41,284 nt of DNA from Ichthyophthirius multifiliis. Taxonomy: Eukaryota > Ciliophora > Oligohymenophorea > Hymenostomatida. The stretch covers positions 1 through 41,284 of the forward strand of contig NW_004085880.1 of assembly GCF_000220395.1 (NCBI RefSeq), given 5' to 3'. The translations under genes and the position numbers were made by a program. Positions 8,770 through 33,133 of the stretch are shown here, one piece after another. The notes under the pieces were generated by a model. That model was given only the letters and a program-made list of their open reading frames with translations, was not told where the DNA came from and made no database searches. The stretch's first letter is position 1, and the number at the start of each line of letters is the position of its first letter.

Positions 8770-9116
8770 TCTATAAATATTAATATCTTATATTATCTAA
8801 TATTTTTAAATTTTATATTTAAAATTTTTATGATGTTCTTTTTTTTACATTGCTCATTTTTAAATGTTGTTTAATAAGAATAAAAAAATAAAGCAAATAA
8901 TATTATAGTTAATTTCAAATTTGCAAAAATATAAAAAAGAAATATTATTGATAGTTCTAATTTACAAAAATGCTTGTAAATTTTTATAAATTTAAAATAA
9001 AATATATTTTTAAATCAATAATATAATCTATATATATAAAAATAAAAAAATACTAAAAAGATATAATTTAAATCAAAAAAAATTAAAACTAATTAAAAAA
9101 AGAGCAACTAAAAGAA
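8770..9116. other. Spacer between divergent genes
   Basis: A/T-rich DNA between the start of the minus-strand Q/N-rich gene and ferrochelatase on the plus strand, so it should hold both promoters. No promoter motif can be picked out. An ATG at 8970 lies in frame with ferrochelatase and could make part of this spacer coding. Confidence 0.5.
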
Positions 9117-10178
9117 ATGTCTAAAACAGCTGTTTTAATGCTCAATTTAGGAGGTCCAAATAATATCTCTGAAGTTACTCCGTTTCTACATCGATTTTTT
9201 TGCGATACAACAGTAATAAGAATTCCATTTGGATTAGGTCCATACATTGGAAAATTAAGAGGTCCTGCAAAAGTGACCAAATAATATCAAAAAATAGGAG
9301 GAAAGAGCCCTATAAAAGATTGGACAATAAAACAAGGTGAGAAAATGATAAAACATTTGGATATAATCTCACCATAAACAGGTCCTCATATTTATTTCCC
9401 AGCATTTAGATATGGATTGCCTTTATACCATGATTAAATAGATGAATGCATAAACAACTATTCAGAAGTAGAAAGAATAGTATTGTTTTCATAATTCCCT
9501 TAATATTCATGTACAACAGCTGGAAATGCTATAAGATATGCTTTAAAGCATATGTAAGAAAATCACAGTAGTCATAATAAGAAAATTCATATAATTGATA
9601 GATGGTTTGATAACGAGTATTACATAAAATCAATTACAAATATTTTAAAATAAGATTTAGAAACCAATTTTGATGAAAAACAAAGAGAAAAAGTTTTAAT
9701 TTTATTCACAGCCCATTCATTACCACTCGATTTTATTTAATAAGGTGATGTTTATCCTTTCGAGATTGCAAGCACAGCTGAAAAAGTAATAAAAGAAGGA
9801 GGATTTAAAAACTCTTATAGGGTCAGTTGGTAAAGTAAGGTTGGACTAAAGTAATGGCTTGCTCCTTCTACAATAAATGCACTTCAATAATATTCGAATA
9901 AGGGTTGGGAATATATAATTATTGTTCCTCTTGGATTTACAAGTGATCATTTAGAAACTCTTTATGAAATAGATCATGAAATAATTGAAGAGTTTGGATC
10001 TAAGCTTAAATATAAGAAAATTGCTAGGTCTAGAAGTTTAAATGATGACGATACCTTTTGTTAAGGATTAGCTCATATTGTTGCCGCTAACTTAAAAGAT
10101 GACAGCTATAGATCACCTAATCTAAATTTAAGATGTCCTGATTGTAAATTTAAAGAATGTAATTTGCTTTTTAAATGA
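9117..10178 (+). CDS. Ferrochelatase
   Basis: Inserts Fe2+ into protoporphyrin IX, the last step of haem synthesis, on the matrix face of the inner mitochondrial membrane. The gene is intronless, 353 residues, and closely matches animal-type ferrochelatase from the first residues ([11 protein letters not shown]). Key residues are present: the active-site His in LFTAHSLP (about residue 200), [12 protein letters not shown] (about 273-284), and PQYSCTT with Cys132. The C-terminus carries CPDCKFKEC, Cys340/343/348, with the C-x2-C-x4-C spacing of the [2Fe-2S] ligands of human ferrochelatase; Cys132 matches the fourth ligand. Gln at many conserved positions is encoded by TAA/TAG. The ATG at 9117 begins directly at the catalytic core with no presequence; an in-frame ATG at 8970 would add 49 mostly basic residues that could serve as one. 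Confidence 0.97.
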
Positions 10179-15750: not shown

Positions 15751-18700
15751 TCAATTGACATTAATATTTTCTTAATTTATATAACTTTTAAATTTAACAT
15801 TTATTTAACAATTAATTTCCTTAATAAATAAAAAAAATAAAATATTATATATACAATAAAATATTACATATTTTTAATTATTTTTATTTGCTTTGAAACT
15901 ATCGGTATTTGCTTATAATTAATTATTTTCCTTCTAATCATCTATTTAATACAGTTTCTCTTATTCTCCATTAATACTATTAGTAATATATTTTTTGTAA
16001 TTTTCAAATGAATCTTTATATTCATTAAATATTTTCATTTATTATATTTAATCCTATTTATTATAACAAAGCGTACAAATAAATTATATTTTTTCAGCTT
16101 CTTCAATACTTCCTTTATACCCCAAACATTTAAAATGGAACCATTCATTGCATATTTCACATGCTTTTTAACAAGAATTTAAATAAGTATAATTATAAAT
16201 TAAAAAATACCCATCATTTAATCTCCATAAGTATATTTTTATCTACAAATACAATATAATTGATCTGAATCCTCTTTTAAAAATTATATATTTTTTTAAA
16301 AAAAATAGAATATATTTACCATTAACTGATTCATAATTTTCAGCATATTTCTCTTCAGTTTCTTTAATTTTTTCTATTTATTTTTTAACTTTTCCAATTT
16401 TTTTAGTATTTAATTTCAATTTTTTCTTTTTATTTTTATCTTTTGATATTTTATTTGCTTTTTTAATATATTTCTTTGATAAATTTTTAATATCGAATTT
16501 ATTATTATTTTCATTTAATTTAAAAAGCTATTATTCTATTTCATTCTTTTTTAATTATCTTAATTTAAAATATTTTGATTTTCTAAACCTTTTCTATAAA
16601 ATTTATTCGAAATTTTTTTTCTAATTCTTACTTTTTTATATATTAATGTATTTTTTATATAACTCTAACTTCGTATCTGGTGATTCACATTTTATTATTT
16701 TGGAAAATTCAATTTAATTAATTATAGTTTTAAAATGTTTTAAAAATTCCTAACCAGGGAAATGAATAACCTAGTATTATAAACTTTGATTATTATTGTT
16801 ATTATTATTTTATTGAATTTATTCATCTTTTTATGTTATTGTTTCAATATCTATTTCATTGTTTTATTATTATTATTGTATTTTTTGGTTTATTTTTTTT
16901 AAATAAATTATATTTTCGTCTATATTATAATAATATATTAGTTAATTAATCACGTTTTTAATATGCTTTTTAAGCTTATTTTTTTGTAATAAATTTTTTA
17001 TTTTCTTTGAAATTTTTAATTTTTATTTCATGACTTTTTTCTTTTATTTTATTAAGTTTTTTTTTAAGATTTGGTAGAAATTTTTTATCTATTTTGCTTA
17101 TTTTTTTATATATTTTTTACAAATCTTATAATTTCTCCCTTTTTTTATAATAATTTTATTTTTATTTTTTGAAAAAAAAAAAAAAGGAAGGAAAGAAAGA
17201 AAGAAAGAAAGTAAGAAATGAAAAAAAAAAATCAAAAAAAAAAAAGAAAATTAATATATTAACTTTAATTATTTTTTTTTGTAAAAAACTTTGTATTTTT
17301 TTCTTTATAATCTAAAGTTTTAATAATTTAGAGAGGTTTATGATAATCACAATATATAATATACTATTATTTCTCATTATTTTATATTTCTAGATGAATA
17401 TTTTATATCCTTGCACATTCAGGATGAAAAGAGTAAATGCAATTATTTTTCTAACATTAAATACAAGAACCTGAGTCTATTTTTGTTGTTATTTTAAATA
17501 AAAAAATAAAAGAATATTACTTTTTTGTTTGCAAATAGCACATTCAAGTTCAAATCTTAATTAATCAATTTTATCCAATCCTTTAATATTATTAACAAAA
17601 TACTTATTTTCAAAAAAGCATTCAGGCACATATAAAATACAAGAAATGTGGCACCAAACATATTTATGTTTAGGCTATGCAATTAATTCTTATTCATCAT
17701 AATTTTTTTTACATATAGTATGATAATCATAATACAAACCTTCTTATTAAGAATTATTTTATTAACTACTTTACTCAATTTCTTATTTATTATCTTTTTA
17801 TAGTTCACATTTATTTGCAAATTCACTATATTTTAAATTTTTATTATTAAAGATATCCTAACTCATTAATATTTTGCTCGGCTTCATTGCTCCTCCCCTT
17901 TTTGTACATAAAGGACAACTTAAATATCTTCCATTCTATCCAAAAGACGTACATAATTCACAAATCCAATCTTCGTTAGGAATCTTGGGAATGCCATAAC
18001 ATTTCTAATGTACAGAGATATTGCATTTCTATAAAAATATTTAAATAAAAATATAAAAAAATCAAATAATTACTGCACAAAAAACTATTAAATCATCATC
18101 AGTATAATCACCATCATTGCATATTTAGCAAGTAATATCATTCATTTATATTTTTTTAGTTACATCATGCTATTTATTATTATTTTATTTATTGTCTTAA
18201 ACTTTATACGTTTCTTCATGAATAATTTACTATTATTTATATGTTAAATACTTTAAGTAGTCCTTTTCTATAGTATTAAGTCCATAAATATCTACTAATA
18301 TATCATTTAAATCGATATCTTATTTTTAGTAAATAACTTTTTCTGTAAAAACTTCGTTTGTTATATTATTTTTGATTTTATTTACTATTTATTTATTTTG
18401 TTCTCTTATTTATTTTAATTCAAACTAATATAATTTTTCAATTTATGAAAGGTCTAATTTTTTCATTAACTGTAATATTTCTTCGATATTATTATTGTTT
18501 GACTCTTCTTATATTTCTTCTTCTAAAGTAGTAGATTCTGATAAATTTGAATAATTAGTAATTATATTATGAATATAATTATTTTATTCGCTATTTGTTT
18601 TCTAATTACTTTATTAAATATATGTTAAATAAAGACAAATTAAATCGTTTCGTGTTTATAAAATATAAAAATCATCTTCTATTGTATAATCTGCTTTTTA

Positions 18701-29740: not shown

Positions 29741-32700
29741 TCAATCAAATTTTATTCCTTTTTATAATTCAGGTTCTTCATCAGAACTTTTAGCTTTTTA
29801 TTTGTTTGGAACTTAAAGCTGCTATTATTATTATTTTAAATTATAAACTAATTCTTTCAAACTTAACCTCATGACTGTTTCAAAATACTTATTTTCTAGT
29901 CCCTAATATAAAAAAAATAAAAAATAAAAAAAAATTAAATATTAATTATATATACTGTATAAAAAAGATTAGGTGAAATAAACTTATCTAATTCAATAGT
30001 TCCTATATACTTGAATAAACTAGATTAATTTCTTGTTTTATTTAATATTTTTTCAATGAAAAAAGATCCAAATTAATCACACTCTACTCTACCAATAAGT
30101 CTATTTTAAGAATAAAGTAAAATTCCTTAATGATGCTCAGCAGAAGTATTTTTTCTAGTAGTTGCTCCCTCTATTTTTTTTAATTTTTATTTCTTTTAAA
30201 TATTCAAAAAAAAAAAAAAAAAAAAAAAATAGTAATACCTTTGATATCAAGTAAATCATTTTAAGATTAGTTTTCAATAGTAGAATCTTAATTATAATTA
30301 GCTTATTCATAAAGGATTGCCTTTCCAGTATCTTTGATTCTCTAATATGACTCAACATTAATTTCTTTCAAAAATCTTCTATCTTTTTATCTTCTTAATA
30401 CATCAGAATAACAAATAAAATTAACATTTTAATCATTTAAAGTAAAATGTAGATTTTCAGGACGTTCAAAAAAAAGATGTTAAATATAACTTTTTAAGCT
30501 AAAATCAATAAGTCTTTCTACTTATTCTTTTTTTTCTTTAAATTGAGTTTTTTTTTTTAATGTAATATCATTTTTTTATTAATTATAAGAAAATTCATAA
30601 TTATATCCATTTTTTGAAGGAATACGTTTTAAATCAAATATATATATATAATTTCCTCTATCATGCTTTATTAATTATTCTTCATTCATTAAAAAAGCTA
30701 TATTATTCAATATTGTTCTTTTATTTTAGTCTCCGTTTTCTGTTAAGTATTACTTCTTTTTTACATCATAGCTATATACAAATATTATCAGTTCTTGTAA
30801 ATTTGGATTTATTTTTATATTTGAACTTATTAATCCTAGTATTTATTTAATAAATAAAAAAATATTATTAACAAAAATTATTTTTTAATTACCAACATTT
30901 AAAATACTATTAGATTTATTTTTTGAAATAAATAAAACACTTTATCCAAGTCTTAAACCAGCAAATTTGATATTATTTCCATACTAAATTTTTAGTTATT
31001 CTTAAATATCAGCTTGCTGTAGTTCTTTTTAAGTTTTTGGATATTAGATTTATTAATGAATATCAAATTTATATAACATATCAACAAATTCATATTAATT
31101 AAATCCTTCGCTATCATCATATATCTAAAAAAAAAGTTCGAAATTTTCAATAACATTTTTATCGATTGATTAATTTAGTAAAATACCATTAACTTTTTGC
31201 TGGTATTACTATTAAATTAACTCATCTTTTTAAATTTGTTATTTATTATAAATATTGTTGTAAACATCTCTTTTTTTAAGATACATTAAATTTATTTTTA
31301 TTTATTAAGATTTTCTATAAAGGGCATTATCAACCAAAAGTCCGAAAGCAGCAAATGGATAGTTTATTAAGTTTGAAATTGCATTTAAAAATGATAAAGA
31401 AATATAAGGTTATCTTATTTTTAACATTATACTTTATTATTATTATTCATTTTAATTTCCCTTTTGTATTTCTTCATCAATTTAAATTTATTATTTTAAT
31501 TACTATTATTATATTTAAGAAATTTATTATATCTATTCTTATTAATTATTTTCATTAGGTACTTAATCATTATCGTTTTCAATATTAATAACTGTTTAAC
31601 CTTCAAGTTTATATTTTTTTATTAGTTATAATTATTGTATTTAATCTTGCTATTCTTATGTCATATTAAAAGCAACTTAGCAATCATGACATATTTTAAG
31701 CTTTTATATTATAAAATAAACATAAAAAATTTTAAAAAGATACATTATTTGAATTTGTTTATTAATTTTTTTTTTTTCCATTTAATTTATCCTCATAATT
31801 TAAAATTAAAACTAAAGTAATATCTTAGCATGATTCATCTTTCATCATACCTCCAAAAAGAATAATTTGATCTTTATAAGCTTCAGTTGAGTGGGAAATA
31901 ATAGGGTTAAATTAAGCATATCTATGCTTTTTTGATGCAACTTCAATCCAAAAGTTATTTAAGGTATCAAAAGCCCAAATATCTTGCAAAAATTTAGATT
32001 CAGTTTCCGCACTATATCTTTCTCCTTCTCCTCCAATAATAAAAATATATCTATCTTTATAAACAGTAGTTGAATGAGAAGCTCTAGCAATAGGTTTTCT
32101 CTCATCTTAATTAATACAAATTTACATAATATCAACAGATTCGTTTTTACCATCATTAAAAACATTAAACTAAATATATAATATTTATTTGATTTATATA
32201 TTTAAATAAAAAATACTTTAATCTTATATAAATCATTAAAAAAAATATCAATTTCTCCAACATTTTTTCCTTACCCACCAAAAATATATAATAATCCATT
32301 AACATTAACAAAACTAAAGCTTTCTCTAGCTTCAATAATAGCTCCATGCTTATTAGTTACCTATTTCCAAGTATTTTAAATACTATCAAACATATGCATA
32401 TCATTATAAATAAGCATATTATCTTCGTCTTAACTATTCAAACCTCCAAAAATAATTAAATATCTATCATCTAAAGTACATCCTTAATGTCCTTCTCTAG
32501 GATATGGATTGTTTCCTGAAGCTTCTATTTATCTCCATTCGTTTTTTTAAGGGTCAAAACACCAAAGATCATTTTTTAATTTTTAATTTGCTGTTTTTCC
32601 CCCAAACATATATATTTTTCCATCTATTAAAGATATAATATGAGAATCTCTATGTTCTGGATTATTTTAAGAATTTATGCTAATTTTCTCCCATTCATAA

Positions 32701-33133
32701 GTTTCACAATCTAATCTATACATTTATGATTTTGTACTTTCGTCATAGTTTTTATCCTCTATATAACCTCCTATTAAATACATGTATTTATCAATCATAA
32801 CAACTTAATGACCCCATCTTTCTAAAGGATAATTAGGAGCTATTATTTTTTATTTATTTTTTTTCTATGATTAATCACCATGTTATTATTAGGTACCACT
32901 TTCATTACTGTTTATTTCGGATTGTTCTTGTTATTATTTTTAATTACGCTTTTTGTTACTTTTATTTAACCATTTCGCATTTTGAAATGGAAGTTATTGT
33001 TTTTTTGATGGTAATTCTTCTTGATTTGAATTTTATTATTGTGCACTTTTTTGATTTTCTTCTCTATTTTTTTTAGATTTGTTTATTTTTATTTTTAGAA
33101 AGTTTTTTACTTCGATAAATCTTGACTAGACAT
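29741..33133 (-). CDS. Kelch-MORC protein (kelch propeller, GHKL ATPase-like, S5)
   Basis: Seven exons (introns 33110-33064, 32216-32170, 31743-31701, 30892-30836, 30238-30171, 29955-29903) sum to exactly 1026 codons including TGA, giving 1025 residues. After a Q/N-rich N-terminus come six kelch repeats marked by double Gly (YLIGGYIED, YMFGGKTA, LIIFGGLNS, LYIFGGQGK, YIFIIGGEGE, IILFGGMM). A Q-rich linker leads to a GHKL domain: NYPFAAFGLLVDNAL (about 545-559), YDDSEGF (about 625), YGNNIKFAGLRLG and GLISSNIKI. The transducer-like part ends with QGILLYSQNRLIGRVE and YIGTIELDKF, as in MORC S5 domains. No CW finger is seen. MORC ATPases compact chromatin and silence genes; apicomplexan MORC also carries kelch repeats. 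The N-box Glu and the DxGxG Gly are replaced, so ATPase activity is uncertain. Confidence 0.88.
30206..30229. repeat. A24 homopolymer in an intron
   Basis: Poly(T) on the sense strand of the kelch-MORC gene, within its intron 30238-30171, just after the 5' splice site. The splice sites on both sides keep the reading frame, so the run is spliced out. Confidence 0.85.

What the first reader, a model, noticed from the sequence alone, without database searches (positions are those of the whole stretch)
29741..33133. Single-gene kelch-MORC fusion in a ciliate
Kelch repeats and MORC sit in one 1025-residue frame across a 43-nt intron (31743-31701) that is in phase 0. If treated as two genes, the kelch stop (31684) would lie only 19 bp from a MORC ATG (31664), too close for separate ciliate transcription units. 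Apicomplexan MORC, a master repressor of stage genes in Toxoplasma, also has N-terminal kelch repeats, so this would point to an alveolate-wide architecture.
Basis: partly seen in the sequence, partly recalled or inferred. Interest (0 to 1): 0.8.

Follow-up and report, generated by a model that had tools for sequence, protein, structure and literature searches.

The report
Ciliate kelch-MORC protein with degenerate ATPase
A fish-parasite ciliate has one gene that joins a kelch propeller to a MORC chromatin module, a combination described in print as peculiar to malaria-type parasites, but its ATP-cutting residue appears to be lost.

Summary
The finding is real. The minus-strand gene at 33133..29741 of this Ichthyophthirius multifiliis contig reads, under ciliate code 6 and across six GT-AG introns, as one 1025-residue protein: six-bladed kelch propeller, CxxC motif, Q-rich linker, GHKL domain, S5 domain. 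A Tetrahymena utriculariae protein (P0002) aligns end to end, over every splice junction. The 19 bp between the supposed kelch stop and MORC start is coding, so the two-gene reading fails.

MORC identity rests on the published MORC-only S5 motif (GILLYSQNRLI) and a profile match to MORC3, E 2.2e-6, the only PDB hit below E 0.35 (reversed control 0 hits). Pfam cut-offs are not reached.

New here: the catalytic glutamate (E35 of MORC3) is leucine in both ciliates; no CW finger; a second, more degenerate kelch-MORC lies on contig C903; no canonical MORC was detected. The architecture matches apicomplexan MORC as described in papers, one of which says kelch 'seems to be unique' to it. Common descent with apicomplexans could not be tested. 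Function as a non-hydrolysing chromatin scaffold is inference.

The parts
33111..33133 (-). exon 1 (MSSQDLS.., start codon)
   Evidence: N terminus aligned with P0002, weakly conserved
33064..33110 (-). intron 1, 47 nt
   Evidence: GTAAAA..AAATAG; joins the ATG to the kelch frame
32217..33063 (-). exon 2: basic/Q-rich N terminus and kelch blades 1-4
32170..32216 (-). intron 2, 47 nt
   Evidence: junction matches P0002
31744..32169 (-). exon 3: kelch blades 5-6
30893..31700 (-). exon 4: CxxC (aa 436/439), Q-rich linker, GHKL with FGLLVDNA, YDDSEGF and YGNNIK
30836..30892 (-). intron 4, 57 nt, in frame without TGA; spliced out in P0001, no counterpart residues in P0002
30239..30835 (-). exon 5: end of GHKL and most of S5
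30171..30238 (-). intron 5, 68 nt (missed by the public model P0001)
29956..30170 (-). exon 6: MORC signature GILLYSQNRLI in S5
29903..29955 (-). intron 6, 53 nt; a splice site at the corresponding place is predicted in the paralogue on C903
29741..29902 (-). exon 7: C-terminal tail, stop TGA

Best explanation
It is a single gene for a ciliate kelch-MORC protein, most likely a nuclear scaffold of gene silencing. The six-bladed propeller would dock partner proteins. The GHKL+S5 module would dimerise and hold DNA or chromatin as in other MORCs. With the catalytic glutamate lost but the ATP-binding asparagine (N39), a lid glycine (G101) and the lid lysine kept, it would bind nucleotide at most and not cycle it. 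Shown here: gene structure, domain order, homology to MORC, a full-length relative in Tetrahymena, Leu at E35 in both species. Inferred: nuclear location, DNA holding, silencing, absence of hydrolysis.
For: One spliced frame of 1025 aa. End-to-end Tetrahymena relative. Kelch by Pfam, E 5.2e-61, scored on the five-intron version. The profile of the two MORC parts finds MORC3 6o1e_A at E 2.2e-6 in three collinear stretches, with one other listed hit at E 0.35; adding the paralogue gives MORC3 alone at E 2.3e-7; the reversed-sequence control gives 0 hits at E<=10. The S5 motif GhXhhpXXRhl, said to set MORCs apart from other GHKL proteins (passage of PMC2292703), matches in both species; with my choice of residue classes it occurs once in 82,564 six-frame residues of the window, and 20 of 20,000 shuffles of residues 441-1025 contain it. 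E35A and N39A leave almost no detectable ATPase activity in MORC2 (passage). Plasmodium and Toxoplasma MORC are linked to HDAC and ApiAP2 proteins (passages).
Against: No expression, localisation or biochemical data. Both structure predictions failed (mean pLDDT 37.2 and 30.3), so the fold is untested. A single-sequence PDB search found nothing (on the version that retains intron 4). Curated Pfam cut-offs are not met. AP2, ELM2 and CW domains were not found in this genome (the ELM2 and CW searches had no positive control). In ES cells the Morc3 E35A mutant fails to localise properly (passage), so loss of E35 could also mean a changed role.
Confidence: 0.65

Rival explanations
1. Two adjacent genes, a kelch protein and a MORC protein, with the apparent fusion created by assuming the 43-nt intron.
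For: With the intron retained there is a TGA at 31686-31684 and an ATG at 31664. The P0002 alignment has a four-column gap right at this junction.
Against: The Tetrahymena protein continues through both parts; the bases between stop and ATG encode part of the CxxC segment seen in both species; the public model P0001 also joins both parts, with a different splice. P0001 and P0002 are themselves gene predictions as far as the calls show.
Confidence: 0.03
2. The C-terminal half is a GHKL protein of another family (MutL, HSP90) and not MORC.
For: Pfam reports only a sub-threshold HATPase_c_3 match for the window protein.
Against: MORC3 is the only significant PDB hit, although MutL and HSP90 structures are many (recalled); the MORC-specific S5 motif is present; P0002 matches Morc6_S5 weakly.
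Confidence: 0.04
3. The kelch-MORC fusion arose independently in ciliates and apicomplexans, so it says nothing about the alveolate ancestor.
For: Kelch proteins are numerous in this genome: 23 of 29 listed matches to P0002 lie in the kelch part only and on contigs other than C923 and C903 (a lower bound). CW is absent, and two copies are present rather than one.
Against: Same order (kelch, then GHKL) in another alveolate phylum; a fusion described as seeming unique to apicomplexans (passage).
Confidence: 0.35
4. The GHKL of this protein is still an active ATPase that uses another acidic residue in place of E35.
For: N39, DD of motif II, the lid Y-G-N and K, and the S5 arginine are retained in Ichthyophthirius.
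Against: Leucine at E35 in both species, histidine at D38 in T. utriculariae, Gly to Asn in the lid and Ser in place of the usual Gly in motif II (consensus recalled).
Confidence: 0.2

Closest known systems
Apicomplexan MORC (PfMORC PF3D7_1468100, PbMORC, TgMORC)
   Same: Kelch motifs and a GHKL ATPase-type domain in one protein (passages in PMC7820235, PMC7440042, PMC12891473, PMC11483127); kelch first in Plasmodium.
   Different: No CW finger (described for apicomplexans), probably much shorter (PfMORC-GFP runs at about 300 kDa), S5 signature present whereas PfMORC is said to lack an S5 fold, catalytic Glu lost, two copies rather than one.
MORC3 (PDB 6o1e; the listing names no species, human by recall)
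   Same: Best PDB hit; three collinear stretches covering motif I, lid to S5, and the S5 signature.
   Different: MORC3 has Glu at position 35 and a CW finger by its name, and no kelch (recalled).
Second Ichthyophthirius kelch-MORC on contig C903 (minus, 9426 to about 6480; L016)
   Same: Kelch propeller, CxxC, degenerate GHKL, S5, and a predicted splice site at the corresponding place before GLEF/GLEN.
   Different: No Glu in motif I; N39 is Phe or Asn depending on a one-residue gap; no YGN..K lid seen by eye; S5 motif R to Q.
Tetrahymena utriculariae ABPG72_014482 (P0002)
   Same: End-to-end match and the same Leu in place of the motif I glutamate.
   Different: Longer acidic linker; D38 is His.

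Membership tests
MORC family (Iyer et al. 2008) | S5 motif GhXhhpXXRhl that unites MORCs to the exclusion of other GHKL proteins | tested here: met
   GILLYSQNRLI (Ich aa 916) and GILLYQDERLI (P0002 aa 1066); definition from a passage of PMC2292703. The C903 paralogue has Q in place of R
MORC family (Iyer et al. 2008) | sequence homology of the GHKL+S5 module to MORCs | tested here: met
   MORC3 E 2.2e-6, best of 2 hits listed at E<=10, and E 2.3e-7, the only hit listed; reversed control 0. Against: single-sequence search 0 hits, Pfam matches below cut-off
MORC family (Iyer et al. 2008) | all four GHKL motifs for ATP binding intact | tested here: not met
   E35 to L, lid Gly103 to Asn, Ser in motif II; N39, G101 and K105 kept. 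Filed therefore as a degenerate MORC homologue, not a canonical MORC ATPase
MORC family (Iyer et al. 2008) | GHKL and S5 folds | tested here: inconclusive
   models of pLDDT 37.2 and 30.3 with 4 and 3 sequences are not usable
Apicomplexan-type kelch-MORC | N-terminal kelch propeller followed by MORC in one polypeptide | tested here: met
   six blades; apicomplexan side from papers only
Apicomplexan-type kelch-MORC | CW-type zinc finger | tested here: not met
   no Trp after residue 364, no Pfam zf-CW match in the window protein or P0002
Apicomplexan-type kelch-MORC | single morc gene per genome | tested here: not met
   second kelch-MORC on C903
Apicomplexan-type kelch-MORC | grouping with apicomplexan MORC in a tree | not testable with these tools

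The most novel reading that the evidence does not exclude
Ciliates of this lineage keep no catalytic MORC. They silence chromatin with a pair of kelch pseudo-MORCs, one that can still bind nucleotide without cutting it and one that has lost still more of its nucleotide site, held together through their CxxC motifs and S5/GHKL faces as a fixed clamp: an ATPase-independent descendant of the alveolate kelch-MORC corepressor. (Lowered from 0.2 to 0.18 on checking, because one search leaves open whether the second copy has lost N39.)
Probability: 0.18. Interest if true: 0.78.

Novelty: new variant of a known kind. Interest (0 to 1): 0.55.

Why it matters
Kelch-MORC represses sex-associated genes in Toxoplasma with HDAC3 and ApiAP2 factors (passage), and its kelch propeller has been said to seem 'unique to apicomplexan MORC proteins' (passage, PMC7440042). 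A ciliate example moves the question of its origin outside that group and points to Tetrahymena, where function can be tested with standard genetics (T. utriculariae has it; T. thermophila was not checked). Leucine at the catalytic glutamate in both ciliates asks whether MORC silencing can work without ATP hydrolysis.

Tried and rejected
Structure: two AlphaFold2 jobs, on P0002 with 4 rows and on the exon 4-5 stretch (intron 4 read through) with 3 rows, gave pLDDT 37.2 and 30.3; no fold search was run on them.

Protein database: three searches (MORC region of the window protein, MORC region of P0002, kelch region of P0002) found 2, 2 and 30 proteins. P0001 and P0002 are in each; the other 28 of the kelch search were seen only as table rows (organisms named there are plants, bacteria and one fungus; many rows have no organism) and their sequences were not inspected. 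The two MORC-region searches scored only the candidates sharing most words (7982 and 7996), so absence of other ciliates and apicomplexans is not evidence of absence. The C903 paralogue did not come back under an Ichthyophthirius name either.

Canonical MORC in this genome: HATPase_c_3 finds 5 places, which read as a PMS-type MutL, an MLH1-type MutL, two HSP90 and one Grp94-type protein (names from my reading of the translations, no database search). The degenerate kelch-MORC itself is not detected by that family, so another diverged MORC could be missed. Morc6_S5 found nothing, with no positive control. The C-terminal part of the C903 paralogue finds only itself, 4 of 4 matches.

Motif I of the C903 paralogue: the first alignment, made by eye without a gap, gave E35 to V and N39 to F. 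MAFFT placed the stretch elsewhere and hhalign did not cover it. A local alignment puts it on motif I (2 of 5000 shuffles reach the score against the window protein, 88 of 5000 against P0002); with its one-residue gap N39 would be kept. Only the loss of the Glu holds in both.

Partners: AP2 not found (control rang in 1 of 14); ELM2 and CW not found, uninformative because the controls did not ring.

Literature: 10 searches. In the listings for MORC with kelch/ciliate, Tetrahymena, Paramecium, Ichthyophthirius or alveolates I saw no paper on a ciliate kelch-MORC; passages of three of those papers were read and do not mention one. Farhat et al. 2020 is not held under the DOI that I tried and is known only as cited in other papers.

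Full report
Origin. The public protein P0001 is named as Ichthyophthirius multifiliis and its longest contig is 41284 bases, the length of the window. I. multifiliis and Tetrahymena utriculariae are both Hymenostomatida, in different suborders. The window has 0 ORFs of 150 aa under the standard code and 139 under code 6.

Gene structure. From ATG 33133 to TGA ending 29741 the minus strand gives a 3078-nt coding sequence over seven exons, 1025 residues, one TGA, with 89 TAA and 10 TAG read as Gln. The six introns are 43-68 nt, GT...AG, GC 0.04-0.13 against 0.18-0.30 in exons. My first five-intron model had 1044 residues. Comparison with P0001 and P0002 showed that 30892-30836 is an in-frame intron. 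Searches were run on the five-intron version.

One gene or two. With intron 31743-31701 retained, the kelch frame stops at 31684 and the next ATG in the MORC frame is 19 nt on. But P0002 continues through both parts, and the 36 nt from 31700 encode LKICHDCQVAFN, aligned with KTCNTCEVVYN in P0002 and comparable with NICEICQQFF in the C903 paralogue. The DNA that a two-gene model calls intergenic is therefore part of a coding stretch whose CxxC recurs in three sequences. Conservation around it is modest (12 of 36 residues identical, and a four-column gap at the junction itself).

Domains. Kelch: Pfam E 5.2e-61, six GG-containing blades at residues 105, 162, 214, 270, 336 and 396. MORC: Pfam gives HATPase_c_3 below its cut-off for the window protein and Morc6_S5 below its cut-off for P0002. 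A single-sequence search of the PDB found nothing. The two-sequence profile found MORC3 at E 2.2e-6 plus one hit at 0.35 (UBX domain-containing protein 7). Adding the paralogue gave MORC3 alone at 2.3e-7, and the reversed control gave none. The MORC-specific S5 motif of Iyer et al. 2008 (passages read) is matched in both species.

Degenerate ATPase. Numbering by the MORC3 chain, the motif I stretch PFSAVAELIDNA corresponds to PFAAFGLLVDNA (Ich) and PFTAFGLLVHNA (T. utriculariae): E35 is Leu in both, D38 is Asp or His, N39 is kept. The lid reads YGNNIK against YGNGFK (G101 and K105 kept, G103 to N). Motif II reads YDDSEGF, with Ser where the GHKL consensus has Gly (recalled). In MORC2, E35A and N39A leave almost no detectable ATPase activity and are described as hydrolysis and binding mutants (passages of PMC11185635); G101A is used as an ATP-binding mutant of Morc3 (passage of PMC8516933). 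The ciliate protein therefore resembles a natural hydrolysis mutant; this is inference from sequence.

Second copy. Searching the same genome with P0002 gave 29 matches: 4 at this locus, 2 on C903 covering the kelch part up to the CxxC, and 23 elsewhere in the kelch part only. Downstream of the C903 kelch are a GHKL-like remnant and an S5 part. hhalign of the MORC profile with this part gives E 1.8e-9 over 272 columns, 29% identity, starting after motif I. Its motif I stretch aligns with that of the window protein beyond chance (2 of 5000 shuffles reach the score; 88 of 5000 against P0002), though MAFFT placed it elsewhere in the three-row alignment. The Glu is absent; whether N39 is Phe or Asn depends on a one-residue gap. 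The S5 arginine is Gln. One stretch of that gene has two possible splice readings, so its exact protein is uncertain.

No canonical MORC was seen. The five HATPase_c_3 places read as MutL and HSP90-type proteins. This is weak evidence, since diverged copies, this gene included, escape that model.

Comparison with apicomplexan MORC rests on papers only: kelch and GHKL in one protein (passages), a CW finger, one gene per genome (Plasmodium). The ciliate protein shares the order, lacks CW and has two copies. [quoted passage not shown] the present gene argues against that. Whether the fusion is ancestral to alveolates remains open.

Function. By analogy with Plasmodium and Toxoplasma MORC, which are linked to HDAC and ApiAP2 proteins (passages), I propose a chromatin-silencing scaffold. 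AP2 domains were not found in this genome, so recruitment must differ or the search missed them. The CxxC segment, present in all three sequences seen, could bind metal between chains; that is speculation.

Noticed in passing
G000:C903 minus strand 9426 to about 6480 (L016): A second kelch-MORC gene with a more degenerate GHKL (no motif I Glu, no lid seen by eye, S5 motif R to Q) and two possible splice readings near 7640-7500.
   Followed up: partly
window 32798..30204, minus: The public model P0001 starts at an internal Met, skips the CxxC stretch and ends in intron 30238-30171 with a run of Phe; it carries only a kelch name.
   Followed up: yes
window 29389 downwards, minus: Next gene on the same strand begins 351 nt after the stop; its start (CQKHNKQVRYICCFENC..LMCELC..H..NH) looks like a B-box to the eye, but Pfam gives no match at E 0.001 for the ORF.
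   Followed up: partly
window 15754-17887, minus: Two overlapping ORFs with a PHD finger (E 0.00025, below cut-off) and a PHD-like zf-HC5HC2H_2 domain (E 5.3e-7): perhaps another chromatin gene.
   Followed up: no
window 8970-10175, plus: Ferrochelatase, Pfam E 7.5e-84.
   Followed up: no
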